Virus record (IMG/VR): IMGVR_UViG_3300021090_000113
Coordinates: 1 to 22,277 of that record
Source of the DNA: a virus
DNA length: 22,277 nt
Reading direction: 5' to 3' (one strand)
The first letter of the stretch is position 1, and every line of letters starts with the position of its first letter. Below the pieces are notes generated by a model. That model was given only the letters and a program-made list of their open reading frames with translations. It was not told the DNA's origin and made no database searches. Of this stretch, positions 10,593 through 21,151 are shown piece by piece. Made by a program: the position numbers and the translations under genes.

Positions 10593-11954
10593 TCAGCGGT
10601 ACATCCCGCACGCCCACTCGGGGCGCACACCGGCGAGCGTGCACAGCACGTCGATCCGGGTCGATTCGGAGTCGGCCGCGCCGTCACCGAACGTCATCAC
10701 GCGCATGCTGAAGCCCTTTGCGTTGTACGTGTAGCCCTCGCACGAGGCGAGCACCGGCAGCGGACGCATCGCGATCGTGAACGCATCGCGGTGATACATC
10801 AGGTCGCGCGAGTAGGTCGTCGAGAGACTGCCCGAGAACGTGATGGCCGCAGCGTCGGCGGGAACCGCGCTGACTGTCTTGTTCGGCATCGTCGCGGTGA
10901 TCGCCGGGTAGAACAAAAGCGAGGTCGTGGTCGAGCCCGCGAGCACCGTGAACTGCTTCAGATCACCCGCGGCCGTGCCGTAGCCGACACCCGTCAGCGA
11001 GTGCACGTCATGCACCCCGGCGATGGTGAACGTCATGCCCGCCACCGGCGCCGCCGTCAGGCCACTCACCACGAGCGCCGCACCCGACTGCGCGGCGCCG
11101 TTCACCGCTCCGACCACATCGGCCGAGTTCGCCACGGCCGGACCGTTGACGATTTCGAAGAACTCGGCGCCCTGCGCGTAGCCGACGTAGCCCTCGCGGT
11201 ATTGCTTGCTGATTTCCGCGTTCGGGTTGAACAGCGCCCGGTCGCCGGTCACCAGGCCGGCATTCGTCGAGGTGTCGATCAGCGCACAACGGTCCTTCAT
11301 CGGCGTCAACGAGCGTTGCAGCTTGCTGCGGGCCGCCGCGAACACTGACATTGCCGTGATGGGCGTACCCGGAGTGCCGACGAAATTGGGCGTCAGCCGC
11401 ATCGCCCGGAGGAGCATGTCCGCTTCGACCGTGGCCGCCAGGCTGGCGATTTTAGGGCGCAAGAAACGGTCCACCCAATCCGATTTGGCATCCGGCACGT
11501 TGAAGACCTTTTCAAACGCGCTGATGTTCAGCACGACGTGCTTCTGGTCCGTCGCCTTGACAAACGTCACCGGCACCGTGCGCTCGACGGTATCCTCGCC
11601 CGCGCCGCCCTCGGCGAACGTCGATCCTGTGTAGACCGTGGCCGTTGGCGGCACCACGATTTCGATCGTCGGACCCTTCTTATACTGCCCGTCCTGACCC
11701 TTGAAATCCTCTTCGCGGGCCCGGTTGCAGTGGTTGATAAGGGGTGCTGACTCTTCGAAGATGGCTGCGGCCTCGCGGGCGAGCATCTGGTGCACCTCGA
11801 GGTTGTTGACCCCGAGGACGAGGCCGCCGCGGGCCATGTAGGCGAACAACGCGGCGTGCGCGCGTTCGGCGGCACCCCACAGGAACCCGCGCACGGCGGG
11901 GACGGACAGCAGCGCCACGAGGGCGAGCGTGGTGAACAGGAGAATGGTTTTCAT
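10593..11954 (-). CDS. Major capsid (coat) protein, P22 type
   Basis: A 453-aa protein. Family features: an N-terminal arm and helix NNLEVHQMLAREAAAIFEES, then GPTIEIVVPPTATVYTGSTF, KPKIASL-like helix 'RFLRPKIASLAATVEADML', SLTPMKDRCALIDTSTNAGL, FNPNAEISKQYREGYVGYAQ, and a C-terminus with DLMYHRDAFTIAMRPLPVLA. These match the HK97-fold coat of P22-like phages (430 aa in P22), including the inserted beta domain at about 265-365. Unusual is the first about 48 residues: MKTILLFTTLALVALLSVPA is signal-peptide-like and is followed by LFAYMARGGLVLGV, a motif shared with scaffold. ATG 11954 lies 1 base past the scaffold stop, with a poor Shine-Dalgarno; ATG at residue 40 is an alternative start giving a normal-length coat. 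Confidence 0.88.
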   Translation of the reverse strand: MKTILLFTTLALVALLSVPAVRGFLWGAAERAHAALFAYMARGGLVLGVNNLEVHQMLAREAAAIFEESAPLINHCNRAREEDFKGQDGQYKKGPTIEIVVPPTATVYTGSTFAEGGAGEDTVERTVPVTFVKATDQKHVVLNISAFEKVFNVPDAKSDWVDRFLRPKIASLAATVEADMLLRAMRLTPNFVGTPGTPITAMSVFAAARSKLQRSLTPMKDRCALIDTSTNAGLVTGDRALFNPNAEISKQYREGYVGYAQGAEFFEIVNGPAVANSADVVGAVNGAAQSGAALVVSGLTAAPVAGMTFTIAGVHDVHSLTGVGYGTAAGDLKQFTVLAGSTTTSLLFYPAITATMPNKTVSAVPADAAAITFSGSLSTTYSRDLMYHRDAFTIAMRPLPVLASCEGYTYNAKGFSMRVMTFGDGAADSESTRIDVLCTLAGVRPEWACGMYR

Positions 11955-11955
11955 G

Positions 11956-12798
11956 TCAGGCTCGTTTGAACCGCTGCGAACGCCATTCCTCGTCGGTCAT
12001 GGCCTTCTCCGCTTTGTCGGAGTTGCCACGCCCGCCGAGCGGCTCGAGCGGTTTGGGGGCATTGGAGGGTTTGGGCGGGGCCTTCCCGAGTTCGATGCGA
12101 ATCTCGGCCAGGCGCGCCCCGAGGCGTGCGCCGCGTAGCCCTTGCAACGATTCGGCCACATCGGGCGTTTGCGCGATGTGGTGCAGCAACGCAGCCGGGT
12201 CTTTGCTGTCGAGCACCGCCTCGATGAATTCCGTGGGTTGGCCGGTGCGCGCATCGACGAACGGAAGATCGTTCGCCAGGTCGAGCACGGTGTCACGGAA
12301 TTTCGTATCGATTTTCTTTCCGGCCTCGAGCATGCGAGAGGTGCGGTCGGCGATGTCTCGTCGGCGCAGTTTCTCGTCTGCCAATTGGTCGGCGCGGGCC
12401 TCGACATCGACGCGGGGTGCGTCGTCCTCGTCATCGTCACTGTCGTCGTTGGCGCGGGGAACGCCTTGCGGTTTTCCTGTCGCCTGCGCCCGGGTCTGTG
12501 CGATCTCGGCCATTGCGTCGTGATACGCCTTGGTCCGACGACCGAAACGGCGCTCGAGCTTGGCCTTGTCCTTGCGGAGCAATTCCAGTTCGATGTCGCG
12601 AGGGTCGCGCGTGTCGGGGGCAGGTAGCAGCGGGTCGGCGTTGCCGCTCGCGTCACCCGCTGCGCCGGTGTCGGCTGGCGCTGCGGACGTAGGGGCCGCC
12701 GGGTCGCCGCTCGCCGGGTCGCCGGGGTCGGCCACGCACAGCACGAGGCCGAGGCGAGCGAGGTAGGCGAACAGCAAGCGGGCGATACGGTCTTTCAT
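11956..12798 (-). CDS. Scaffold protein
   Basis: A 280-aa, highly charged protein directly before coat, the position of the P22 scaffold gene. ATG 12798 is preceded by GGAA at a seven-base spacing. After an N-terminal LFAYLARLGLVLCV segment (9-22) comes a Pro/Ala/Gly/Asp linker, a charged helix (LRKDKAKLERRFGRRTKAYH), an acidic stretch (SDDDEDD), a helical middle (ADQLADEKLRRRDIADRTSR) and a basic C-terminal end (MTDEEWRSQRFKRA). An acidic middle and a short basic C-terminal helix are typical of scaffolds, the latter binding coat during procapsid assembly. Sequence is not closely P22-like; the call rests on layout and location. Confidence 0.8.
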   Translation of the reverse strand: MKDRIARLLFAYLARLGLVLCVADPGDPASGDPAAPTSAAPADTGAAGDASGNADPLLPAPDTRDPRDIELELLRKDKAKLERRFGRRTKAYHDAMAEIAQTRAQATGKPQGVPRANDDSDDDEDDAPRVDVEARADQLADEKLRRRDIADRTSRMLEAGKKIDTKFRDTVLDLANDLPFVDARTGQPTEFIEAVLDSKDPAALLHHIAQTPDVAESLQGLRGARLGARLAEIRIELGKAPPKPSNAPKPLEPLGGRGNSDKAEKAMTDEEWRSQRFKRA

Positions 12799-12830: not shown

Positions 12831-12867
12831 CGATAGTTTCACACTATTTTGACTGTTCCGTCAATAG
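12831..12867 (-). promoter_or_regulatory. 37-bp three-hexamer element, copy C (before scaffold)
   Basis: On the plus strand CGATAG, 7 bases, CTATTT, 12 bases, CAATAG; read along transcription it is CTATTG-N12-AAATAG-N7-CTATCG. The spacing is identical in the two other copies. It lies 7 bases after the stop of the 153-aa gene and 32 bases before the scaffold ATG. Extra complementarity is present: GAC (12851-12853) with GTC (12860-12862), and ATAGT (12833-12837) with ACTAT (12843-12847). It may be an operator, a promoter for a non-standard polymerase, or an RNA hairpin. No good sigma-70 -10 box is found at 17 bases from the TTGACG. Confidence 0.7.
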
Positions 12868-12874
12868 CGTTTGG

Positions 12875-13336
12875 CTACCCCCGCCGACCGATCAACCACA
12901 CTTTGAGCCCGGCGCCCGCGATGGTGCTGCCCACCGCGTCGATGTCGATCGTGATTTCGGCATCATCAGCAAGGGCCGCGTCACTGATGACCGGCGGTGC
13001 CGCCGCGGTCGTGCTGGTCTTCTCTGTGGCGTCGATTGAAATTGGCGTGCTCAGCACCGACGCCCCCGCCTCATTCACGTCCACGACAATCGCCGCACCG
13101 GTGGGCGCCACCGTGACGGCGGCGCGCACCTCGTCAAGAACGAACGCGAACGGCACGCGGAACGCGTACTTCCCGACGCCCGCCGTCAGCGGCGTTGATT
13201 CGTCGCCGATGAAGCAAGGCAGCGCTACGCGCACAAGCTCATTCACCGCCCCGCGTTTGAGCGCCCCGCCCTGCACGATCAGCGCGGTGTCCGCGTCGGC
13301 CGGAGTGACCAGGGGGTAGAGGGTGACGGCGCCCAT
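12875..13336 (-). CDS. Beta-rich virion-type protein (head fibre or decoration-like)
   Basis: A 153-aa protein with ATG at 13336, four bases after the 52-aa ORF stop and preceded by AGGG. The core KYAFRVPFAFVLDEVRAAVT and PTGAAIVVDVNEAGASVLST, followed by SIDATEKTSTTAA and a C-terminal DDAEITIDIDAVGSTIAGAG stretch, is a recurrent small-protein type in phage genomes ('Y.FRVP.AF.L..VRA.V..APTG....VD(I/V)NE.G.S(I/V)LST'). It reads as a compact beta sandwich that could decorate a head or fibre. No catalytic motif is seen. It lies just before the scaffold gene, separated by element C. Confidence 0.65.
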   Translation of the reverse strand: MGAVTLYPLVTPADADTALIVQGGALKRGAVNELVRVALPCFIGDESTPLTAGVGKYAFRVPFAFVLDEVRAAVTVAPTGAAIVVDVNEAGASVLSTPISIDATEKTSTTAAAPPVISDAALADDAEITIDIDAVGSTIAGAGLKVWLIGRRG

Positions 13337-13340
13337 TACC

Positions 13341-13499
13341 CTACGCGTCCGTCAACAGAGCGCCGGCCTCATCGAACAGCAGCGCCCCCGACTCATCGCA
13401 CAGCAGTTCGGCCGTGCGTAGCGAGTTGCCCGACCTGACGACCATTCCATCCGGCCAGCGCAGCAACGACCCGACGAACGCCCACAGTGTTTGTAGCAT
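13341..13499 (-). CDS. 52-aa small phage protein with C-terminal LL.DE.GALL repeat
   Basis: ATG at 13499 overlaps the TGA of the exported-protein gene (ATGA); the longer upstream frame is antisense-like and not used. The sequence begins MLQTLWAFVGSLLRWPDGMV and ends with two near-copies, LLCDESGALL and LLFDEAGALL, then TDA. Coupling on both sides argues that it is translated. The duplicated short acidic-hydrophobic motif suggests a beta-hairpin repeat. Function unknown. Confidence 0.6.
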   Translation of the reverse strand: MLQTLWAFVGSLLRWPDGMVVRSGNSLRTAELLCDESGALLFDEAGALLTDA

Positions 13500-13924
13500 C
13501 ACGGGTGCGCCAGGAACAGCGCCACGCAACGCGGTGAGTCTGGCACCGTCACGTGCCGTTTGTAGCTGGCGCTCCACGCGGCGGGCGGGTCCGCCGCGAG
13601 TCGCACCGTGTCGACCCGATCGCCGAGGCGCCGCAGGTCAATCACGGCCCACGATGCTTCGAGACAGTGCCGCGTACGCACCGGCGTCACCCCGGGCTGC
13701 AGCGCGTAGCAGTTCCACAGCACCCACGGGCCCGCGGGGTCAACGATCGAGTAATGCGTGACGGCCCCGACGAACTGTGGCGAATCTTCGAACGGGGCGC
13801 AGCGTGGCATCTGTGCCGCCGTGGGCGTGGCCGCGACCGCGGGCGGGACGGCGCAGAACGCGACGAGTACGGCCGCGATGAGCAAACGAGCGATGAGGCC
13901 GCCGAGGGCGTCGATGGTGCGCAT
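13499..13924 (-). CDS. Exported four-cysteine protein of unknown function
   Basis: A 141-aa protein with ATG 13924. The N-terminus shows a signal peptide: MRTIDALGGLIARLLIAAVL, hydrophobic to about residue 28, then AVPPAVAA with a good AVA-A cleavage site near residue 31. There is no lipobox: the C24 in VAFC sits inside the hydrophobic core with F before it. The mature part has cysteines at 42, 72, 87 and 133, an even number that could form two disulfides in the periplasm. No known domain is recognised. It lies between structural genes, where a secreted host-interacting protein (superinfection exclusion, receptor masking) or cargo gene could sit; this is inference. No clear Shine-Dalgarno; element B ends two bases before the ATG. 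Confidence 0.65.
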   Translation of the reverse strand: MRTIDALGGLIARLLIAAVLVAFCAVPPAVAATPTAAQMPRCAPFEDSPQFVGAVTHYSIVDPAGPWVLWNCYALQPGVTPVRTRHCLEASWAVIDLRRLGDRVDTVRLAADPPAAWSASYKRHVTVPDSPRCVALFLAHP

Positions 13925-13926
13925 GT

Positions 13927-13963
13927 CGATAGTGTCGGCCTATTGAACCGCAGCCGTCAATAG
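13927..13963 (-). promoter_or_regulatory. 37-bp three-hexamer element, copy B (before exported protein)
   Basis: On the plus strand CGATAG, 7 bases, CTATTG, 12 bases, CAATAG, with exactly the spacing of copies A and C. It overlaps the last codons and stop of the LamG gene (TAG at 13942-13940) and ends two bases before the ATG of the exported-protein gene. In the transcript CUAUUG and CAAUAG form a perfect 6-bp pairing across 12 bases. It shares the 11-mer CGTCAATAGCG (plus strand) with the other copy regions. Confidence 0.68.
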
Positions 13964-15517
13964 CGCGATGGCGATCTCGTCCAGCTGCGCCTGCTGCAGC
14001 CGGGCAATCTGCGTTTCAATGCGCTCCGATTCGGCCAAGTCGAGCGCATGCTGCTCGCGCAACACCTCCATGTGCGCTTGGAGCGCCTCGGCCTGCACGC
14101 GTGCTGCTCGCGCCCGCTCGACTGCCTCATCGACCGGTGCAGGCCCCCGCCGGGTCCGGGCCGGGGTCGGGGGCGCAACATCGGCGGGGGGTGCTGCTGC
14201 TGCTGCTGCGTCGGCCTCATCTCGCTCCCTGCGCTCACGCCGCGCAGCCTCGGCGACCGCGCGCCGGCCCGCGACGGTGTGGTCACGAACGAACCCCCCG
14301 CCCCCTGACACCCCGGGGAGCAGCGCGAACGCCGTATCCGTTTCGGTGGCCATGCCCGCCGGCTGCGGACCAACCGCCAGCAGCGCGAGTGCAGTATTCG
14401 TCTCACCGGCCATGCCGACCTGTGCGAGCTGAACTGGCGTCAGTGAAAGCGCAACGTCCGTTTCGGTGGTGGTGCCAGTGGCGCGGATTTGCACGGCAGC
14501 AAGAGCTTGCGCGGAATCGAGCTCTGTGGCGATATCAGCCACGGCGATTTGCACCGCGGCCAACGCTAGCGCAGCGTCGGTTTCTACCGCCATGCCAACC
14601 GCCGTGCCCGCGCCAGCGGATAGCGCCAGAGCGGTGTCAGTTTCGGAGGCGAGCCCGGCCGCCCCAATCTGTACTGGCGTGAGAGCGATGGAAGTGTCGG
14701 TCTCCGTTGCCGCACCGGCGGCACGGATCGATACCGCGGAGAGGGCCAGAGCGGAGTCTGTTTCGTCTGATCGGCCTGCGACGCGCAACTGAAAACCGAC
14801 CAGCGCCAGAGCGGAGTCTGTTTCGTCAGCGCGGCCGACCGACGTTCCCGCCGCTGCAGCCGGCGCTTGGACTTGCGCCCCAACCTTCCACGGCTGCCAC
14901 CCCGTGTCTTCCGTCGTCAGCGTCCCGCCGACTGTCGGGTTGCGTCCGTTGCCGCTGTAGTCGCCAGTGTCAGTCGAACTGCGCAGAGGCCAGTGAAAGT
15001 TAAGCGAGGTCGGAAACTTGACGCGCTCGTAAAACGACTCGACCAACAACTCGTCGGCTGTAAGCGCTCGGTCCCAGCATTTGATGTCCCGGAATCGGCC
15101 GTTGAACCACTCCGAATACTGGTCGTTGCCGATCTGCAGTGCGGCCGGCACGAACGCGCCACGCCCGTATGTGGCCGATGACCATACATTTGAGCCGACT
15201 GCACGGTAGTAGCCGGTGGTTTGCCCGGCCCCCGTGCCTGTGGATGTGACGGCCCACGCGAACGGGGTGCCGGCCACGAGCGTGGCAATCGTGCTCGACG
15301 GACCACCGGTTGCGTCAAAGAACACCAGGCTTGTGCCATCGATATCCGTGCCGAAGTACAGATACCCGGAACCCGACTCCCTCAACTCAAACAGGCCGGA
15401 GTAATTGTTCCGGGCCGTGACCATGTGGCCCCACCCCATGAGGGTGAAACTGACATCATCCGGGAGGTTTGCTGACCTCGACAGTGAGTCGCCAGAGGCG
15501 TCAATGCGGACGGCCAC
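13940..15517 (-). CDS. LamG/ConA-like lectin protein with nine 20-residue repeats
   Basis: A 525-aa protein; GTG 15517 is preceded by AGGGGCGGG at good spacing. Three parts are visible. (1) Residues 1-215, a laminin-G/concanavalin-like lectin fold: GLFELRESGSGYLYFGTDID, an AFVPAALQIGND strand, WFNGRFRDIKCWDRALTADE (the usual LamG end), and WPLRSSTDTGDYSGNGRNP. (2) Residues 228-407, nine tandem repeats of exactly 20 residues with core ETDTALAL. (3) Residues 415-515, a charged coiled coil with an Ala/Pro-rich hinge. Lectin, rigid repeat stalk and coiled coil suggest a head fibre or sugar-binding surface appendage. It is in the block between portal and scaffold, not with the tail fibre. Domain call good; role inferred. 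Confidence 0.75.
   Translation of the reverse strand: MAVRIDASGDSLSRSANLPDDVSFTLMGWGHMVTARNNYSGLFELRESGSGYLYFGTDIDGTSLVFFDATGGPSSTIATLVAGTPFAWAVTSTGTGAGQTTGYYRAVGSNVWSSATYGRGAFVPAALQIGNDQYSEWFNGRFRDIKCWDRALTADELLVESFYERVKFPTSLNFHWPLRSSTDTGDYSGNGRNPTVGGTLTTEDTGWQPWKVGAQVQAPAAAAGTSVGRADETDSALALVGFQLRVAGRSDETDSALALSAVSIRAAGAATETDTSIALTPVQIGAAGLASETDTALALSAGAGTAVGMAVETDAALALAAVQIAVADIATELDSAQALAAVQIRATGTTTETDVALSLTPVQLAQVGMAGETNTALALLAVGPQPAGMATETDTAFALLPGVSGGGGFVRDHTVAGRRAVAEAARRERRERDEADAAAAAAPPADVAPPTPARTRRGPAPVDEAVERARAARVQAEALQAHMEVLREQHALDLAESERIETQIARLQQAQLDEIAIALLTAAVQ
14297..14836 (-). repeat. Nine tandem 60-bp coding repeats (ETDTALAL)
   Basis: Inside the LamG gene, nine in-frame units of 60 bp without indels, coding for G-x-A-x-ETD-(S/T)-A-L-A-L-x-x-V-Q-I-x-x-A. 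The first two units (nearest the lectin) share a 22-base exact match at 14806-14827 and 14746-14767, 60 bases apart; the others have diverged at DNA level but keep the ETD/LAL core. This points to old amplification under protein-level selection plus one recent duplication or conversion. Confidence 0.85.
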
Positions 15518-15529
15518 GGCCCGCCCCTA

Positions 15530-16021
15530 TCAAGCCGCGTCGCGCAGCTCGACCATCAGCACTTGCGCATCGCCGGTCGCGTCGTCGGTCCCGCTCGTGC
15601 CGTCGGCATCGCGGTTCAAGCGCAAGCGGAAATAGTCCCCGGCCGCCATGCTGTCGGCGTTCGTGAGTGTGACCGACAGTTGGTCGATGTGGCCAGCCGT
15701 CCCCGGCACCGTCGCCCCGTTGCTGTTCGAGGTGTCGAATGACGAGGCCGCATCCGTGTCTACGGCATCGCCGTCGGTGATGGCCTCGATTGCAACCTGC
15801 CAGCGCGCGGCGCCGGTGGTGGCCGAGGCCATGCGGTAGGTGATGATGGCCGTCAGCGCCCCGGTGAGCCCTTGCGGCGCGACGCCAGACCAGTCGCAGG
15901 ACTCGTCGGTTGTGGCGTCGAATGCGAGGTAGGGCCGGAGCTGCCCGTCCACGCCTGGCGCAGGCATGTTCGTGCTCGGGAAGTTCGCCGACTCGGGCAG
16001 GAACACGCAGCGGGTAGCCAT
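15530..16021 (-). CDS. Virion-type beta-rich protein
   Basis: A 163-aa protein; ATG 16021 overlaps the TGA of the 81-aa ORF (ATGA). Recognisable blocks: RPYLAFDATTDESCDWSGVA, LTAIITYRMASATTGAARWQ, VAIEAITDGDAVDTDAASSF, and AGDYFRLRLNRDADG with a closing VLMVELRD strand. This 'L.FDA...E...W.......G.LT..I.Y.MASA..G...W.V..EA.T.GDA.D.D...SFD' layout recurs in phage genomes as a jelly-roll-like protein of unknown function, usually among structural genes. It directly precedes the LamG gene, 12 bases apart, and is probably a virion component. Confidence 0.65.
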   Translation of the reverse strand: MATRCVFLPESANFPSTNMPAPGVDGQLRPYLAFDATTDESCDWSGVAPQGLTGALTAIITYRMASATTGAARWQVAIEAITDGDAVDTDAASSFDTSNSNGATVPGTAGHIDQLSVTLTNADSMAAGDYFRLRLNRDADGTSGTDDATGDAQVLMVELRDAA

Positions 16022-16266
16022 CAGGTCACCTCGTATCGGCGGCGCAGGACAAGCATGAACATGGCCGCCTTCTGCTTGGTGGTCAGAATCCCGCGCTGCG
16101 GCTGCGGGATCGCGGTGTTACCCGCTGCCGCCACGGTTTCCCACCAGTCGTCCATGGCGTTGAACGCGGCGCGCAGCTGTGGCTTCGTCAGTCCACCAGG
16201 ACAGTCATCGGTGCGCTGAATCTCGGCGGTCAACGCGGCGCGGTTGGGGTCAGGCAGCACAGCCAT
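16021..16266 (-). CDS. Small conserved phage protein
   Basis: An 81-aa protein, ATG 16266 two bases after the upstream stop, with its own TGA overlapping the next ATG. It begins MAVLPDPNRAALTAEIQRTD, continues LTKPQLRAAFNAMDDWWETV and IPQPQRGILTTKQKAAMFML, and ends RRRYEVT. The 'LPD.NRA......R......TK..LRAA..A.DDW....A...N.AIPQP.R..L...QKA.LFM.V..RRY' pattern is a recurrent phage small-protein type always found next to virion genes. Mostly helical. Function unknown; assembly or decoration accessory by context. Confidence 0.65.
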   Translation of the reverse strand: MAVLPDPNRAALTAEIQRTDDCPGGLTKPQLRAAFNAMDDWWETVAAAGNTAIPQPQRGILTTKQKAAMFMLVLRRRYEVT

Positions 16267-16268
16267 GG

Positions 16269-16730
16269 TCAGCTCGCCCGGAAAAACACGCCGGTCGTCA
16301 TCTGAATATCGGCGCCGCTCGGTGTCTGCACGAAGTCAAACATCGTCAGCGGGATGATCGCGGAGTCGGCGCCGCCGGTGGTGTCGGGGTCGTAGCAGAC
16401 CGCGATCTTGCTGATGGCGTTGCCTGCCGCCGCTGTCCAGGTGACCGTCGGAAGGGACACCTCGTAACGATCGTTCGTGTCGTCGGGTGCGGGCAGCGCC
16501 GCCAATTCTGCGTCCGTCAGGGTCTTGCGCCCCATCGTGGTCTGTTCGTTCGTCGTGCCGGCAATCAGCGCGGCGAGCGAGTCCACATCGATCAGCGTTG
16601 CGTCCGCTTCGAGGCCCGACGTTTCGATCGGCACGAGGATCAACGCCGAGTTTGCCGGATCGTTGCTTTCGACGCGATTGTAGTACTCGACAACGCGCCC
16701 CTTGGCGATGTTGAAAACGATATTTGCCAT
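16269..16730 (-). CDS. Virion-type hypothetical protein after portal
   Basis: A 153-aa protein. ATG 16730 (MANIVFNIAKGRVVEYYNRV) is preceded by AGAGG and lies 13 bases after the portal stop; the longer upstream frame overlaps the portal coding region and is rejected. Blocks: ESNDPANSALILVPIETSGL, GRKTLTDAELAALPAPDDTN, and AVCYDPDTTGGADSAIIPLT followed by MFDFVQTPSGAD and FFRAS. This 'GRV.E....V...DPANSALI.V......EADATL.D.D....L.AGT..E....GRK.L...D' type is widespread in phages and metagenomic phage contigs and is usually near head or fibre genes. Function is not established. Confidence 0.68.
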   Translation of the reverse strand: MANIVFNIAKGRVVEYYNRVESNDPANSALILVPIETSGLEADATLIDVDSLAALIAGTTNEQTTMGRKTLTDAELAALPAPDDTNDRYEVSLPTVTWTAAAGNAISKIAVCYDPDTTGGADSAIIPLTMFDFVQTPSGADIQMTTGVFFRAS

Positions 16731-16743
16731 TGGATTGCCTCTG

Positions 16744-19011
16744 TCAGTTGGTTGCCACTTCGCCCACCGCGCGAACGGGTCGGCCTTGCTCGTCGTACTC
16801 AATGGTCGCCACGCGGGGCTGCGTGACCAAATCAGCCAGCTGCGCGATTTGGTCCTTCGCCTCACCGACCGCAGCGCCGACCGTGGCCACGTCCTGCGCG
16901 GCCCCCGCTTGTACTTCCGCCATCTGCGTGACAGCCGCGATGATGTCCTGCACTTGCCCCGAGAGCGACGCCGCTGCAGCTTGATCCTGCGCGGCCCTCG
17001 CTTCCGTCTCGGCGCGCAGCATGTCGGCCTCCGCCTCGATGCGTTTGCTGTCCGCCTCCGCGCCCTTGATGTCGAGCTCGCGGGCCTTCAGCGCGTTCGC
17101 CATCTGCGCCTCCTGCGTGTCGCCTGCGGCCTGTTGCGCCGCGCCCTGCGCCTGCTGCAGCTGCTCGGCCAGCTGCGCCAACAGTTGACCCGCCTGCTCG
17201 AGCTTGCCTTGCATGGCCTGCATCTCGGCGCGCACCGCTGGCGGCACCACTGGCGCTTCGTCGTCCTCGCCTTCGCTGTAGGCGGCCTGCACTTGAGGCG
17301 GCAACAGCGCCAGGCAGATACGCGTGATCTTGTCGGCCTCGGGCAAATCCTCGAGCTTCACGAGGATCGGCGCGAGCGCTGCGGCCAGGGCAGGATTCGC
17401 TTGGCCGAGCGTGGTGAGCCGATCCTTGAGTTCCTCGCGCAGCGTCGTGTACCCGGGGCCGACCTTGACGCGCGTGTCGTATTGACCGATTCGCGGATTG
17501 ATTGCCTCGACCTTACCCGCCTCGTTGCGCACGATGGCCTCAGGCAAGTCAGGGTCGATTGTCACCGTCCCCGACTTGCCGTCGAGCGACAACGTGCGCA
17601 CCGTGCGGCGCGAGTCGATCAACCGCGAATCCATGTCGAGCAGGCAGCGGCCGAGGTGCTCGATGCTGCGCCGCTGGTTATCGACGTAGTGGAACGTGGC
17701 TGAGTCGCCTTCGATCTTGTCGGCGACCTTGGCACGGCCGCTCACGGCGTTGCTCTGCTGGCCAAGCACCGACTTGTTCATCCCGACCGATGACATCATC
17801 GCTTGGATGCCCAGTTGCGCACCGTTGGCGAACGCCGCGGGGAACGTGGGCGGGCTCATACGCTGCGGCGCCGCGATGGGCGGGTCGTTCGGGTCGTCCG
17901 GCAGGTCATTGAACGGCAGATACGAGGGGTTGCCCTTGTTGAGTCGCGCCCAATGGTCTTCGTGGCCCTTGATCGCTCGCGCCGACGCCAGAAACGGCGC
18001 CTTGGGCTGTTCGAGCAGCGACTCGGCAAGACTGGTCATCTCGACGTTGTAAAACCGCTGGCCGCCCATGAGCCGACGCGTCAGGCCCGACACGTAGCGC
18101 TTTCCGTCCACCCACACCATGTGACCGTAGACGGGAATCAGGCCGATCCACGTGCACGGGAAGTCGGTTTCTTCGAGGATTTCGCAACCGCTCATCTTGC
18201 GCCACTTCACTTCGCGGCCGAGCTCAGCTTGCGGGTCGGTTTCGATCACACGGGGCTTCGTCCCGGTCTTGGCCGACACCTCGTGATATTGGTCCTCCGT
18301 CATAGCGACGCGGTTCTCGCCGCGATCGTCGCCCGTGATGATGCGATTGCCGCGCTTGATGTCGATGCTGAAATATTCAGCGACGCGCACGCCCTTGTCG
18401 CTGAACCATCCCTTCGTCTCACCGAACGATGACACTCGCGCTTTGGGGTACTTGCGCTTGAACGTGCGTTCGTGCATCGTCGTCTCGACGAACCCGAACG
18501 CGGCATCGCTGCCGTCGAATTCGGTCGAGTCACCGTCGATGCAGGCCGACAACGGGTCGTTGACGGCGAAGATGCGCGGTTCCTGAAAATTGTTCTCGCG
18601 GTCAACAACGACCGGAACGAAACGCAACCACCCGAGCGCGCATCGCGCTGAGTATTCGAGCGACGTGTCATAGGCGATGGCCGCCCGGCTGCGGTACTCG
18701 AAGTAGCGCAGGCGCTCGGCTTGTTTGAGCGCTACGTCAACGTTCGCACGATCGTCACCTGGCGTGACCGACAGGCTCGGGGTGTTCTGCCGGCCGTCGT
18801 TAACCACCTGTTGAATGAACTGGTTGGTCTGGTCGAGCGTCAGCGTGATGTCGCGATTCTTGCGGGCCTCGAGGGTCTTCTCGGGCCACTGTTGCGGGTC
18901 GGCCGGGTTGCTAAACCGCAGGTCTTCCCGCATGCGGTCGTAGTTCTCGCGCCACGCCTCCTGTGCGTCGTCGTACCGCTCGCGCGCCTGCTGGAACGTG
19001 TCTTGGGCCAT
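16744..19011 (-). CDS. Portal protein, P22 type
   Basis: A 755-aa protein (725 in P22). It starts MAQDTFQQARERYDDAQEAW, then LRFSNPADPQQWPEKTLEAR, ITLTLDQTNQFIQQVVNDGR and NTPSLSVTPGDDRANVDVAL, the standard opening of P22-like portals. Later blocks are YDTSLEYSARCALGWLRFVP, PLSACIDGDSTEFDGSDAAF, MVWVDGKRYVSGLTRRLMGG, SSVGMNKSVLGQQSNAVSGR (loop) and GPGYTTLREELKDRLTTLGQ. Residues about 600-720 form an Ala/Gln/Glu-rich coiled coil, like the barrel of P22 gp1 that projects into the head. The protein forms the dodecameric DNA channel at one capsid vertex and docks the terminase. ATG 19011 directly abuts an inverted repeat. Confidence 0.92.
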   Translation of the reverse strand: MAQDTFQQARERYDDAQEAWRENYDRMREDLRFSNPADPQQWPEKTLEARKNRDITLTLDQTNQFIQQVVNDGRQNTPSLSVTPGDDRANVDVALKQAERLRYFEYRSRAAIAYDTSLEYSARCALGWLRFVPVVVDRENNFQEPRIFAVNDPLSACIDGDSTEFDGSDAAFGFVETTMHERTFKRKYPKARVSSFGETKGWFSDKGVRVAEYFSIDIKRGNRIITGDDRGENRVAMTEDQYHEVSAKTGTKPRVIETDPQAELGREVKWRKMSGCEILEETDFPCTWIGLIPVYGHMVWVDGKRYVSGLTRRLMGGQRFYNVEMTSLAESLLEQPKAPFLASARAIKGHEDHWARLNKGNPSYLPFNDLPDDPNDPPIAAPQRMSPPTFPAAFANGAQLGIQAMMSSVGMNKSVLGQQSNAVSGRAKVADKIEGDSATFHYVDNQRRSIEHLGRCLLDMDSRLIDSRRTVRTLSLDGKSGTVTIDPDLPEAIVRNEAGKVEAINPRIGQYDTRVKVGPGYTTLREELKDRLTTLGQANPALAAALAPILVKLEDLPEADKITRICLALLPPQVQAAYSEGEDDEAPVVPPAVRAEMQAMQGKLEQAGQLLAQLAEQLQQAQGAAQQAAGDTQEAQMANALKARELDIKGAEADSKRIEAEADMLRAETEARAAQDQAAAASLSGQVQDIIAAVTQMAEVQAGAAQDVATVGAAVGEAKDQIAQLADLVTQPRVATIEYDEQGRPVRAVGEVATN

Positions 19012-19035
19012 GCTATTGCCGGGGGCGTCAATAGC
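19012..19035 (-). promoter_or_regulatory. Perfect inverted repeat abutting the portal start codon
   Basis: GCTATTG at 19012-19018 and CAATAGC at 19029-19035 (plus strand) form a perfect 7-bp dyad with a 10-bp centre. In the transcript the 3' arm ends at the base before the portal ATG, so pairing would cover the ribosome-binding region; no strong Shine-Dalgarno is visible there. The arm CAATAG is also the first hexamer of the 37-bp element copy A, so the two structures are exclusive or form a larger site. Confidence 0.6.
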
Positions 19036-19065
19036 GCGAGTCTATCCCGAACGGCCGGACGATAG
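19029..19065 (-). promoter_or_regulatory. 37-bp three-hexamer element, copy A (before portal)
   Basis: On the plus strand CAATAG, 7 bases, CTATCC, 12 bases, CGATAG; spacing matches the other two copies exactly. It fills most of the 60-base gap between TerL (stop 19072) and portal. Read along transcription CTATC and GATAG pair across the 12-base spacer. Compared with copies B and C both arms changed together (CTATT/AATAG to CTATC/GATAG), a compensatory change that favours dyad symmetry or RNA pairing. Confidence 0.68.
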
Positions 19066-19071
19066 CAATCC

Positions 19072-20292
19072 TCATCGATCGGACACGGGGATTTTGATGG
19101 GCTCGCGAACACTGCGCAGCGCCCGGCGGGACCCCTCGCAAGCGTAGCGTAGCGCGTCAATCACGTGATTATCCTTGTCGCGCAGCTTGGGCAGCACAAG
19201 GCCCGTGAGCTCGTCAACTTCCCAGCTGTAGGCCGTAAGCTCGTCGATGGTGTGCACGCAGCGCGGGTGCACCACGATGTCAAAAGTCTTAAGGAACTCA
19301 ATGCCCTCCTCCAAAGACCTGGCGCCCTTGATCGCGGCCAACATCTTGGGAAATCCGTGCCGCTGCATGTAGCTGATCGTCTCGGGCCGGCTCGAGTCGG
19401 CCACCGTGGGCCAGCGCTCGGCCTCAGGCACCGAGCGAAACAGGTCGGGTAGAAAGTCGATGTCGCAGCCGACCCGGTACGCCTCATGCGCCACGTAGAG
19501 CGTGCGGCCGACAATGGCCCCTTGCACAAGAGCCGACGGGTCAACGGCAAAGCCCCAATCCGCGCCCTGGCGTAGCGTCCACGCGGGGTCGATGTCGAAC
19601 TCTTCGACGCGCCAATTCCTGAAAACCCGCGCCTCGCTGTTCTGCTGATAGGCGCCGCGCCATACGTGTCGATACTTGTCCGGGTCGCGGCGCTTGTCAT
19701 ACTCCATTTCGTCGCGCAGCACCTGAGGAAACCACGGGTTGTCCTCATAGTTGACCTGCACAACGACGGCGCCGGGTGGCGGGTTCTCGCCCCGCAACAG
19801 CGCGTCAACGGGATCGGTTGACTGGTTCGGGTTCCATCCGAACCACAGTTCGCTATCTTCGGTGCGCAGCGTCGGCCTCAGCAGGTCGAGCGAGCGCTGC
19901 GACAGTGACTGCGCTTCTTCGACCCACGCGATGCCGAACCCCTCGAGCGACTTGATGCTGTCGGCCGTGTGGTTCTGCATGCCCTCAAAGATCGTCACGC
20001 CGCCACGCTTGGACATGATGAGCTTGTCTTGCACGTCGAAGTGTGCCCCGACATTCATCGCCGCGATCTTCGTCTCGAGCAGTTTCTTCACCGACTGCTG
20101 CAACGTGCGTTGATACTCACGGATGCACACCGCGTCAACCTTACGCATGATGTGCTGCTCGATGAGCGATTCGGCGAAGAAATGCGACTTGCCAGAGCCC
20201 CGGCCTCCGTGCGCGCCCTTGTACCGGGCGGGCTGCAGCAGCGGAACGAACGCGCGGGGCGTCGGTATGCTTAGCGCTGCCACCTGCGCCAA
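19072..20292 (-). CDS. Terminase large subunit (TerL)
   Basis: A 406-aa protein of the terminase_3 / PBSX-like group. ATPase: Walker A GGRGSGKS at residues 29-36, Walker B IAWVEEAQ at 121-128, and a coupling motif WFGWNPNQ at 150-157. Nuclease: acidic residues in GADWGFAVDP (D245, D251), VADSSRPET (D299) and DKDNHVIDALRYA (D379), the RNase H-like set. It powers DNA packaging and makes the end cuts. The start is uncertain: TTG 20292 gives MAQVAALSIPTPRAF; a GTG nine bases downstream is possible. It overlaps the 64-aa ORF by 22 nt. Length is slightly shorter than typical (about 420-480) but all motifs are present. Confidence 0.93.
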   Translation of the reverse strand: MAQVAALSIPTPRAFVPLLQPARYKGAHGGRGSGKSHFFAESLIEQHIMRKVDAVCIREYQRTLQQSVKKLLETKIAAMNVGAHFDVQDKLIMSKRGGVTIFEGMQNHTADSIKSLEGFGIAWVEEAQSLSQRSLDLLRPTLRTEDSELWFGWNPNQSTDPVDALLRGENPPPGAVVVQVNYEDNPWFPQVLRDEMEYDKRRDPDKYRHVWRGAYQQNSEARVFRNWRVEEFDIDPAWTLRQGADWGFAVDPSALVQGAIVGRTLYVAHEAYRVGCDIDFLPDLFRSVPEAERWPTVADSSRPETISYMQRHGFPKMLAAIKGARSLEEGIEFLKTFDIVVHPRCVHTIDELTAYSWEVDELTGLVLPKLRDKDNHVIDALRYACEGSRRALRSVREPIKIPVSDR

Positions 20293-20465: not shown

Positions 20466-20917
20466 GTTGGCGCCTTCGGGTCGACGATGGTGCGCTCGAT
20501 GCGCTCGATCTGGACAGCTCCACCATCAGGACCAGTGAGAGCCACCTTGTCGCCATAGCGCTTCGGCGCCCACTTGCCGAGCAGGCGCATGCGAGTGTCG
20601 ATGCGCAGCCGCCGGTGCTCGATCATGTCGCCTTCCATCACCTCGACACCCTCCGCACTGATCTTGGTCTTCTGGCCGATCATCGGCGTGTCAGCGATGT
20701 GCAGGCACTGCTCGGCGAGCGTCTCGTAACCGAGGGCATACGCACGCGCGGAATCCGCTGCGAAGTCGTCACGCTCGATCGCCCAGCGCCGAACGGTCGA
20801 CGCGCTCGGCATGTCATCGTCGCGGCAAATCGAGTCGAGTGGTTCGCCCTCGGCAAGCCGCTCACAGATACGTTGTGCTAGTTCCGGCGTGTACATGGCC
20901 CGGATTATGCCCGCCAT
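20462..20917 (-). CDS. Terminase small subunit (TerS), Sf6-like
   Basis: A 151-aa protein. The N-terminal helix-turn-helix region YTPELAQRICERLAEGEPLD with SICRDDDMPSASTVRRWAIE is the DNA-binding part. The oligomerisation core has ARAYALGYETLAEQCLHIAD and EVMEGDMIEHRRLRIDTRMR followed by LLGKWAPKRYGDK, the signature of the Sf6-type TerS group. It recognises the packaging site and feeds DNA to TerL. ATG 20917 is used; ATG 20896 (MYTPELA) is a reasonable alternative, as neither has a strong Shine-Dalgarno. The packaging site may lie within or next to this gene, as in related phages (inference). Coupled to the 64-aa ORF. Confidence 0.9.
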   Translation of the reverse strand: MAGIIRAMYTPELAQRICERLAEGEPLDSICRDDDMPSASTVRRWAIERDDFAADSARAYALGYETLAEQCLHIADTPMIGQKTKISAEGVEVMEGDMIEHRRLRIDTRMRLLGKWAPKRYGDKVALTGPDGGAVQIERIERTIVDPKAPT

Positions 20918-20952
20918 GTTGACCGTCGCGTCAAGAGCACGGCCACAGGTTC

Positions 20953-21151
20953 CTAGCCCTTCTAGCCCTCTAGCCCTTGTGTTTTCAAAACTTCCTGACG
21001 GGGGCCGGAGGGGGCTGCTGTGTAATTGCTGTATTTACTGCACCTTCTCTATAACTTTCATACTTATAAGGGCTAGAAGGGCTAGAAGGGCTAGACACCG
21101 GGCGTCAGCGTCTAGCCCTTTCGACCCCGCCTAGCCCTTCGGGTGGGCTAG
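20953..21151. repeat. CTAGCCC/GGGCTAG repeat cluster with an AT-rich centre
   Basis: Nine heptamers in 199 bases: CTAGCCC (plus) at 20953, 20962, 20970, 21112 and 21131; GGGCTAG at 21070, 21079, 21088 and 21145. The first three and the second three form nine-base-period tandem arrays (TAGCCCTTC-type) that are nearly perfect reverse complements (20953-20978 and 21068-21094, one indel), able to make a stem of about 26 bp with an 89-base loop. The loop holds an A+T-rich stretch (about 21020-21069), unusual for this GC-rich region. The last two copies reach into the end of the VapE gene. Plausible roles: replication origin iterons, packaging site, or a terminator/attenuator. Nothing here distinguishes them. 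The rest of the 20918-21130 gap holds no gene that I can support. Confidence 0.75.

What the first reader, a model, noticed from the sequence alone, without database searches (positions are those of the whole stretch)
12831..19065. Three-copy 37-bp element of fixed geometry in the head operon
CRATAG-N7-CTATYN-N12-CRATAG (plus strand) occurs at 12831-12867, 13927-13963 and 19029-19065 with identical spacing while the spacer bases differ. Outer same-direction hexamers are 31 bases apart, about three helical turns. Arms co-vary (CTATT/AATAG in two copies, CTATC/GATAG in the third), so symmetry is maintained. The 11-mer CGTCAATAGCG is also shared at 12859, 13955 and 19026. The copies sit before scaffold, before the exported-protein gene and before portal, dividing an otherwise gapless operon. 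This looks like a real regulatory system: a protein operator, a phage-specific promoter, or an RNA switch in which the middle hexamer can pair with either neighbour. It matches no promoter type that I recognise.
Basis: seen in the sequence. Interest (0 to 1): 0.85.

Follow-up and report, generated by a model that had tools for sequence, protein, structure and literature searches.

The report
OxyR-like operators in phage head operon
Three short DNA sites between the head genes of an uncultured P22-like phage have the spacing and core sequence at which the bacterial stress sensor OxyR (a LysR-type regulator) sits in its resting form, which suggests, but does not prove, that this phage lets a host regulator control its late genes.

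Summary
In detail: CTATYG-N13-RATAG-N7-CTATYG occurs three times on the coding strand of the late operon, with 0 matches of this quality in shuffles. The pattern is about 20-fold over a reversed-letter control in IMG/VR, and about 50-fold denser per base there than in bacterial genomes. Two pattern-retrieved contigs turned out to be true relatives (TerL 70-72% identical). They carry the element at the syntenic junctions, terL|portal and upstream of scaffold, with unrelated spacer bases. It is therefore a selected DNA element. Anatomy: two ATAG-N7-CTAT dyads 31 bp apart, the outer distal half weak. Nonredundant viral sites cluster at dyad spacings of 22 and 30-32 bp, the IR1-IR2 (22) and IR1-IR3 (31) spacings of OxyR and related LysR-type regulators. 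In 59 bacterial oxyR loci I recover the same dyad upstream of oxyR (8/8 in 17), with secondary peaks at -31 and -22. No phage record tested encodes a LysR protein. Best explanation: an operator of the reduced-OxyR type, probably bound by the host's OxyR or a relative, gating internal late promoters (most likely repression). Binding and sign are inferred. RNA switch not supported; packaging site unlikely. A phage-encoded regulator with the same geometry is the main rival.

The parts
19029..19065 (-). Element copy 3, between the terL stop (19072) and the portal start (19011): CTATCG-N13-GATAG-N7-CTATTG. A further CAATAG lies at 19013-19018, just before the ATG.
   Evidence: syntenic counterpart in L037
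19029..19047 (-). Proximal dyad of copy 3, GGATAG-N7-CTATTG (11/12)
13927..13963 (-). Element copy 2, overlapping the stop codon of gene 13940-15517 and ending 2 nt before the ATG of the exported-protein gene
13927..13945 (-). Proximal dyad of copy 2, CAATAG-N7-CTATCG (12/12)
12831..12867 (-). Element copy 1, upstream of the scaffold gene
   Evidence: counterpart at the same place in relative G034/L080
12831..12849 (-). Proximal dyad of copy 1, AAATAG-N7-CTATCG (11/12)
12862..12880 (-). Distal dyad of copy 1, GGGTAG-N7-CTATTG (10/12), 31 bp from the proximal one: the only copy with all four half-sites recognisable
19072..20292 (-). terminase large subunit
   Evidence: PHROG 3717
16744..19011 (-). 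P22-like portal, downstream of copy 3
   Evidence: PHROG 156
13499..13924 (-). small gene with a signal-peptide-like start, downstream of copy 2
   Evidence: no PHROG match
11956..12798 (-). head scaffolding protein, downstream of copy 1
   Evidence: PHROG 8865
10593..11954 (-). major head protein
   Evidence: PHROG 283

Best explanation
Each copy is a DNA operator for a LysR-type regulator of the OxyR class. It has an intact proximal dyad (RATAG-N7-CTATYG) and, 31 bp (three turns) away, a distal dyad of which at least the inner half (CTATYG) is kept. This is the IR1-IR3 geometry that OxyR occupies in its reduced form, not the 22-bp geometry of the oxidised form. No element-bearing phage record tested encodes a LysR protein, so the binder is most likely the host's OxyR or a close LysR-type relative. 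The proximal dyads start 20-50 nt upstream of the start codon of portal, the exported protein and scaffold. The perfect dyads upstream of bacterial oxyR genes mostly lie at a similar distance (13-49 nt), where OxyR represses its own gene. The likeliest action is therefore repression of internal late promoters by reduced OxyR, relieved when OxyR is oxidised or outpaced late in infection. Shown here: the motif, its geometry, enrichment, syntenic conservation and match to bacterial oxyR promoters. Inferred: identity of the protein, binding, presence of promoters, and the sign of regulation.
For: Not chance. Conservation appears at positions not in the query: a fourth half-site at -11..-8 and Y at position 18. 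Strict four-half pattern: 62 in viruses, 7 in 257 Gb of bacterial DNA; two of those 7 lie directly upstream of LysR-type genes, one of them best matched by the OxyR model. Spacing peaks at 22 and 30-32 bp in viral sites. OxyR consensus ATAG-n7-CTAT with dyads at -66, -44 and -35, i.e. 22 and 31 bp (PMC5002191); reduced OxyR contacts two groove pairs separated by one helical turn (PMC2881104). 59 bacterial oxyR loci: 8/8 dyad upstream in 17, 0 inside the gene, offset peaks at -31 and -22. Relatives: L037 (TerL 70%) has the element directly after the terL stop, before portal, same orientation; G034/L080 (TerL 72%, portal 48%, coat 46%) has it 36 nt before scaffold. 0 of 50 phage records have a LysR domain over cut-off.
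Against: No binding data and no known host. Two of three copies lack a good distal outer half-site. The inner t/a positions of the OxyR consensus (ATAGntnnnanCTAT) are met at only 1 of 6 places in the window copies. CynR-type promoters also showed an 8/8 or 7/8 dyad in a small control, so ATAG-N7-CTAT is not exclusive to OxyR. Exact consensus sites are rarer in bacterial genomes than in phages. No sigma-70 promoter is recognisable at the sites. Relatives with TerL 51-68% identical lack the element, so it is lineage-specific.
Confidence: 0.5

Rival explanations
1. The sites are operators of a phage-encoded (non-LysR) late-gene regulator that binds as two dimers three helical turns apart; the likeness to OxyR geometry is convergence.
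For: Sites are far denser in viruses than in bacterial genomes, closer to consensus than typical bacterial OxyR sites, and cluster in late/packaging regions with a preferred orientation (20 with terL, 5 against, p = 0.004).
Against: Carriers are unrelated phages of 34-65% GC. Clustering of ORFs near the sites shows no shared regulator across them; the largest clusters are TerL, a TerS-like protein and overlap artefacts. The window itself shows no candidate regulator, though it is partial.
Confidence: 0.28
2. The sites are packaging (cos/pac) or replication sites recognised by terminase or an initiator.
For: In other phages the site usually lies once per genome, 0.1-2.5 kb upstream of terL, sometimes in arrays.
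Against: The window has three copies downstream of terL at gene starts and none upstream of terS. Of 53 terL-selected relatives of the commonest carrier family only 1 has a site, which an essential packaging signal would not allow.
Confidence: 0.06
3. RNA switch in the leader mRNA, in which the middle arm pairs with either neighbour.
For: Arms are complementary; copy 1 can form a hairpin.
Against: No covariation in 91 nonredundant sites. Folding is not better than shuffled. A conserved fourth half-site and sites in either orientation relative to genes point to DNA.
Confidence: 0.03
4. Site for a tyrosine recombinase or remnant of a mobile element.
For: Inverted arms around a 7-bp spacer look like a core site, and the copies are dispersed.
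Against: Spacers differ among copies and relatives. No flanking duplication. Conserved position at syntenic junctions with diverged flanks. Paired dyads at fixed 22/31-bp spacing are not a recombinase hallmark.
Confidence: 0.04

Closest known systems
OxyR operator in the oxyR-oxyS region (IR1/IR3, reduced form), Escherichia coli
   Same: ATAG-n7-CTAT dyads; 31 bp between dyads; proximal dyad close to the start of the controlled gene
   Different: Lies in phage head operons, not next to a LysR gene; distal outer half-site weak or missing; no 22-bp IR2 partner in the window copies; inner t/a positions mostly not met
OxyR(AB)/OxyR(BC) sites of the phage P22 gtr operon (PMC2909390) and the Mu mom operator
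   Same: Phage-borne genes under host OxyR; gtr site spacing fits reduced OxyR; the BC site represses
   Different: Those control accessory genes and are coupled to Dam methylation; the window copies contain no GATC within the 37 bp and sit at core head genes
OxyR site in the Pf4 xisF4 promoter (PMC12395586)
   Same: Single ATAGTCTTGCTCTAT dyad in a phage promoter, bound by host OxyR
   Different: One dyad only, controls excision, acts as activation on oxidative stress
CynR and IlvY operators (other LysR-type regulators)
   Same: Same two-or-three-dyad layout with 22 and 31-32 bp spacing
   Different: Published consensus ATAA-n7-TTAT and TTGCA-n5-TGCAA, not ATAG-n7-CTAT; but one CynR gene tested here has an 8/8 ATAG dyad

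Membership tests
LysR-type regulator operator | Imperfect dyad with T-N11-A core | tested here: met
   All three proximal dyads (RATAG-N7-CTATY)
LysR-type regulator operator | Two dyads at about 22 or about 31 bp | tested here: met
   31 bp in all three, distal dyad partial in copies 2 and 3; viral set peaks at 22 and 30-32
LysR-type regulator operator | Cognate LysR gene encoded nearby | tested here: not met
   0 of 50 carrier records over the HTH_1 cut-off; none among the ten window proteins scanned. A host-encoded regulator would not need this.
OxyR operator | ATAG-n7-CTAT consensus | tested here: met
   recovered upstream of bacterial oxyR genes
OxyR operator | Inner t and a positions of ATAGntnnnanCTAT | tested here: not met
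   1 of 6 positions in the window copies; in 80 viral sites n2 is C/T in 76% and n6 A/G in 66%
OxyR operator | 31-bp spacing of the reduced form | tested here: met
OxyR operator | Bound by OxyR, response depends on oxyR | not testable with these tools
   needs gel shift and an oxyR deletion host
OxyR operator | Overlaps or adjoins a promoter | tested here: inconclusive
   Sites are 2-32 nt upstream of start codons, but no sigma-70 match lies there; transcript starts unknown
OxyR/Dam phase-variable operator | GATC sites within the operator | tested here: not met
   No GATC within any 37-bp copy
RNA switch | Compensatory changes between arms | tested here: not met
cos/pac site | One per genome, conserved with terminase | tested here: not met
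   three copies in the window; 1 of 53 terL-selected relatives

The most novel reading that the evidence does not exclude
Diverse uncultured phages independently place reduced-OxyR-type operators on their late or packaging operons, so that the host's resting redox sensor holds back virion genes and oxidation releases them: a redox checkpoint on phage assembly, with three such gates in this one head operon.
Probability: 0.3. Interest if true: 0.82.

Novelty: new variant of a known kind. Interest (0 to 1): 0.6.

Why it matters
Host OxyR is known to act on a few accessory or switch genes of phages (Mu mom, P22 gtr, Pf4 xisF4). Operators of the same geometry at core head and packaging genes of unrelated phages would mean that virion production itself can be tied to the host redox state. 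The site is short, its proposed partner is a well-studied protein, and the reduced (C199S) form exists as a reagent, so the idea is directly testable.

Tried and rejected
T7/SP6-type promoter: copy 2 (AATAG..ACACTATCG) looks superficially like one, but spacing differs by one base and the conserved partner dyad 31 bp away is unexplained. Sigma-70 promoter at TTGACG in CTATTGACG: no -10 at 16-18 bp in any copy; tool scan negative there. RNA switch: rejected. cos/pac: rejected. Recombinase core site: rejected. Idea that the element is a conserved feature of the abundant terL family seen in many hits: not supported, 1 of 53 when relatives were chosen by protein. 'Terminase neighbours are enriched' as a claim about the adjacent gene: not supported against other genes of the same loci; only the upstream-of-terL position is. 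Shared phage-encoded regulator: none found by clustering, but the clustering is crude. Literature searches for the hexamers found nothing relevant. Cultured relatives of the terL family (SSU5, ZY21, ANB28, Vibrio 1.157.O, Kolga and others) have no convincing site near terL.
Full report
WHAT WAS CHECKED. The window is a complete IMG/VR record of 22,277 bp, 67% GC, carrying the late region of a P22-like podovirus on the minus strand: D5-like helicase/primase, TerS, TerL, P22-type portal, several small genes, scaffold, major head protein and tail/injection genes. The spaced pattern is present at 12831-12867, 13927-13963 and 19029-19065 with no mismatch and nowhere else. Dinucleotide-preserving shuffles give 0.05 matches even with three mismatches allowed. 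On the coding strand it reads CTATYG-N13-RATAG-N7-CTATYG in all three places.

IT IS NOT AN ACCIDENT. From the overlap with a later complete scan (26 of 62 strict hits had already been seen) I estimate about 280 in all. Eighty nonredundant hits show conservation at positions that were not part of the query: a further half-site at -11 to -8 (A-T-n-G) and a pyrimidine at position 18. The full element is thus two dyads, [wATAG-N7-CTATYG]-N12-[YRATAG-N7-CTATYG], with the outer distal half weakest. The strict four-half pattern gives 62 stretches in viruses but 7 in 257 Gb of bacterial genomes; the per-base ratio of about 50 assumes roughly 40-45 Gb of viral DNA, which is my estimate. The element is rare in absolute terms, and most carriers have one site per record; three in one head operon is unusual.

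SYNTENY. Among the loci brought in by the DNA pattern alone, two proved to be relatives of the window phage: L037 (TerL 70% identical, portal 34%) and the contig of L080 (G034; TerL 72%, portal 48%, coat 46%, collinear tail genes). In L037 the element starts directly after the terL stop codon and precedes portal, in the same orientation as window copy 3. In G034 it ends 36 nt before the scaffold start, at the place of window copy 1, though with the intact dyad distal instead of proximal. The spacer bases are unrelated. Conserved arms and spacing amid saturated spacers, at the same gene junctions, are what a selected protein-binding site should show. It is lineage-specific: Xanthomonas phage PBR31 (TerL 68%), MW202867 (66%), MW202573 (58%) and more distant relatives lack it. 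Because L037 and L080 were found through the pattern, their having it is by selection; their kinship and the position are not.

WHAT THE ANATOMY MATCHES. RATAG-N7-CTATY is a T-N11-A box of LysR-type regulators and equals the OxyR consensus ATAG-n7-CTAT (PMC5002191). In the E. coli oxyR-oxyS region three such dyads lie at -66, -44 and -35, that is 22 and 31 bp apart. Oxidised OxyR uses four adjacent grooves; reduced OxyR uses two groove pairs separated by one helical turn (PMC2881104). When I let the dyad spacing vary in the viral scan, nonredundant sites peaked at 22, 30 and 32 bp (21 each, beside 31 bp which was scanned separately) over a background of about 2-3 per spacing, with smaller peaks at 25 and 38. 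To see whether bacteria really use this geometry I collected 59 oxyR loci from Pseudomonadota: the best dyad within 250 bp upstream is perfect (8/8) in 17, against 0 inside the genes, and 15 of 847 random windows elsewhere in the same loci. Around those dyads the mean score peaks at -31 (3.61) and -22 (3.21) over a baseline of 2.15 +- 0.45; the peaks at +-11 and +-13 are trivial overlaps of the dyad with itself. Of the seven bacterial strict hits one lies directly upstream of a gene whose best model is OxyR and one upstream of another LysR-type gene. None of 50 carrier phage records encodes a LysR domain over cut-off. Hence the proposal that the host's OxyR, or a LysR-type relative of it, is the binder. 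A small control warns that a CynR-type gene can also have an 8/8 dyad, so the exact regulator is less sure than the class.

HOW IT PROBABLY WORKS. In the window the proximal dyads begin 35, 20 and 50 nt upstream of the portal, exported-protein and scaffold start codons, close to where the perfect dyads mostly sit upstream of oxyR itself (13-49 nt). At oxyR, and at the BC site of the P22 gtr operon whose spacing fits reduced OxyR, such binding represses (PMC5002191; PMC2909390). I therefore favour repression of internal late promoters by resting (reduced) OxyR, with release on oxidation or late in infection. Activation cannot be excluded: in gtr, OxyR bound at the upstream site activates. No sigma-70 promoter is recognisable at the sites, so the existence of promoters there is an assumption.

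OTHER PHAGES. In carriers with a recognisable terL the site is nearly always upstream of it, mostly 0.1-2.5 kb (the listing includes some near-duplicate registers), and the 31-bp element faces terL in 20 of 25 cases (p = 0.004). This suggests control of the late/packaging operon start. But when 53 relatives of that commonest terL family were chosen by protein instead of by site, only one had a site. So the feature is scattered, gained and lost, as host-regulator operators are, and is not a packaging signal.

ALTERNATIVES. An RNA switch is not supported: no covariation between arms in 91 nonredundant sites, no folding excess, occurrence in either orientation to genes, and a fourth half-site. 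A phage-encoded regulator with the same geometry is the serious rival: phage sites are closer to consensus than bacterial ones, and no host is known. Clustering of nearby ORFs found no shared regulator, which is weak evidence because most loci are fragments.

VERDICT. It is best read as a new variant of a known kind: LysR/OxyR-type operators with reduced-form spacing at core structural genes of phages. The class of operator is moderately well supported by computation; the protein, the binding and the sign are inference.

Noticed in passing
window 20917-21131 (minus strand): The 214-bp gap upstream of terS holds many copies of GGGCTAG/CTAGCCC in both orientations around an AT-rich core; it could be a pac/TerS site, an origin or another operator array.
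   Followed up: no
window 14319-14841, inside gene 13940-15517: Tandem 60-bp (20-residue) imperfect repeats coding for A(T/V)ETDxALAL-type units in a large late protein.
   Followed up: no
G034 (contig of L080): In this relative the portal gene (15357-17141) has moved away from terL, which now precedes the element and scaffold: head-module rearrangement with the operator kept before scaffold.
   Followed up: partly
L209, L262, L207, L292, L253, L302, L317 upstream of the sites: A recurrent box like AAACCCTAGGTTTTGATTGATTG directly upstream of the dyads in carriers of one terL family.
   Followed up: no
L034, L045, L060, L113, L155, L157, L172: Arrays of more than two dyads, some at 38-bp spacing with an extra CTATC half-site between.
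   Followed up: partly
L177:611-1039 and about 54 similar loci: A terS-position protein with AT-hook-like KKRGRPRK motifs, with no PHROG match and no match among cultured phages.
   Followed up: partly
L019 2108 and 4250: A phage with a distantly P22-like portal has one dyad at terL|portal and another just after portal, an independent parallel to several sites in one head operon.
   Followed up: partly
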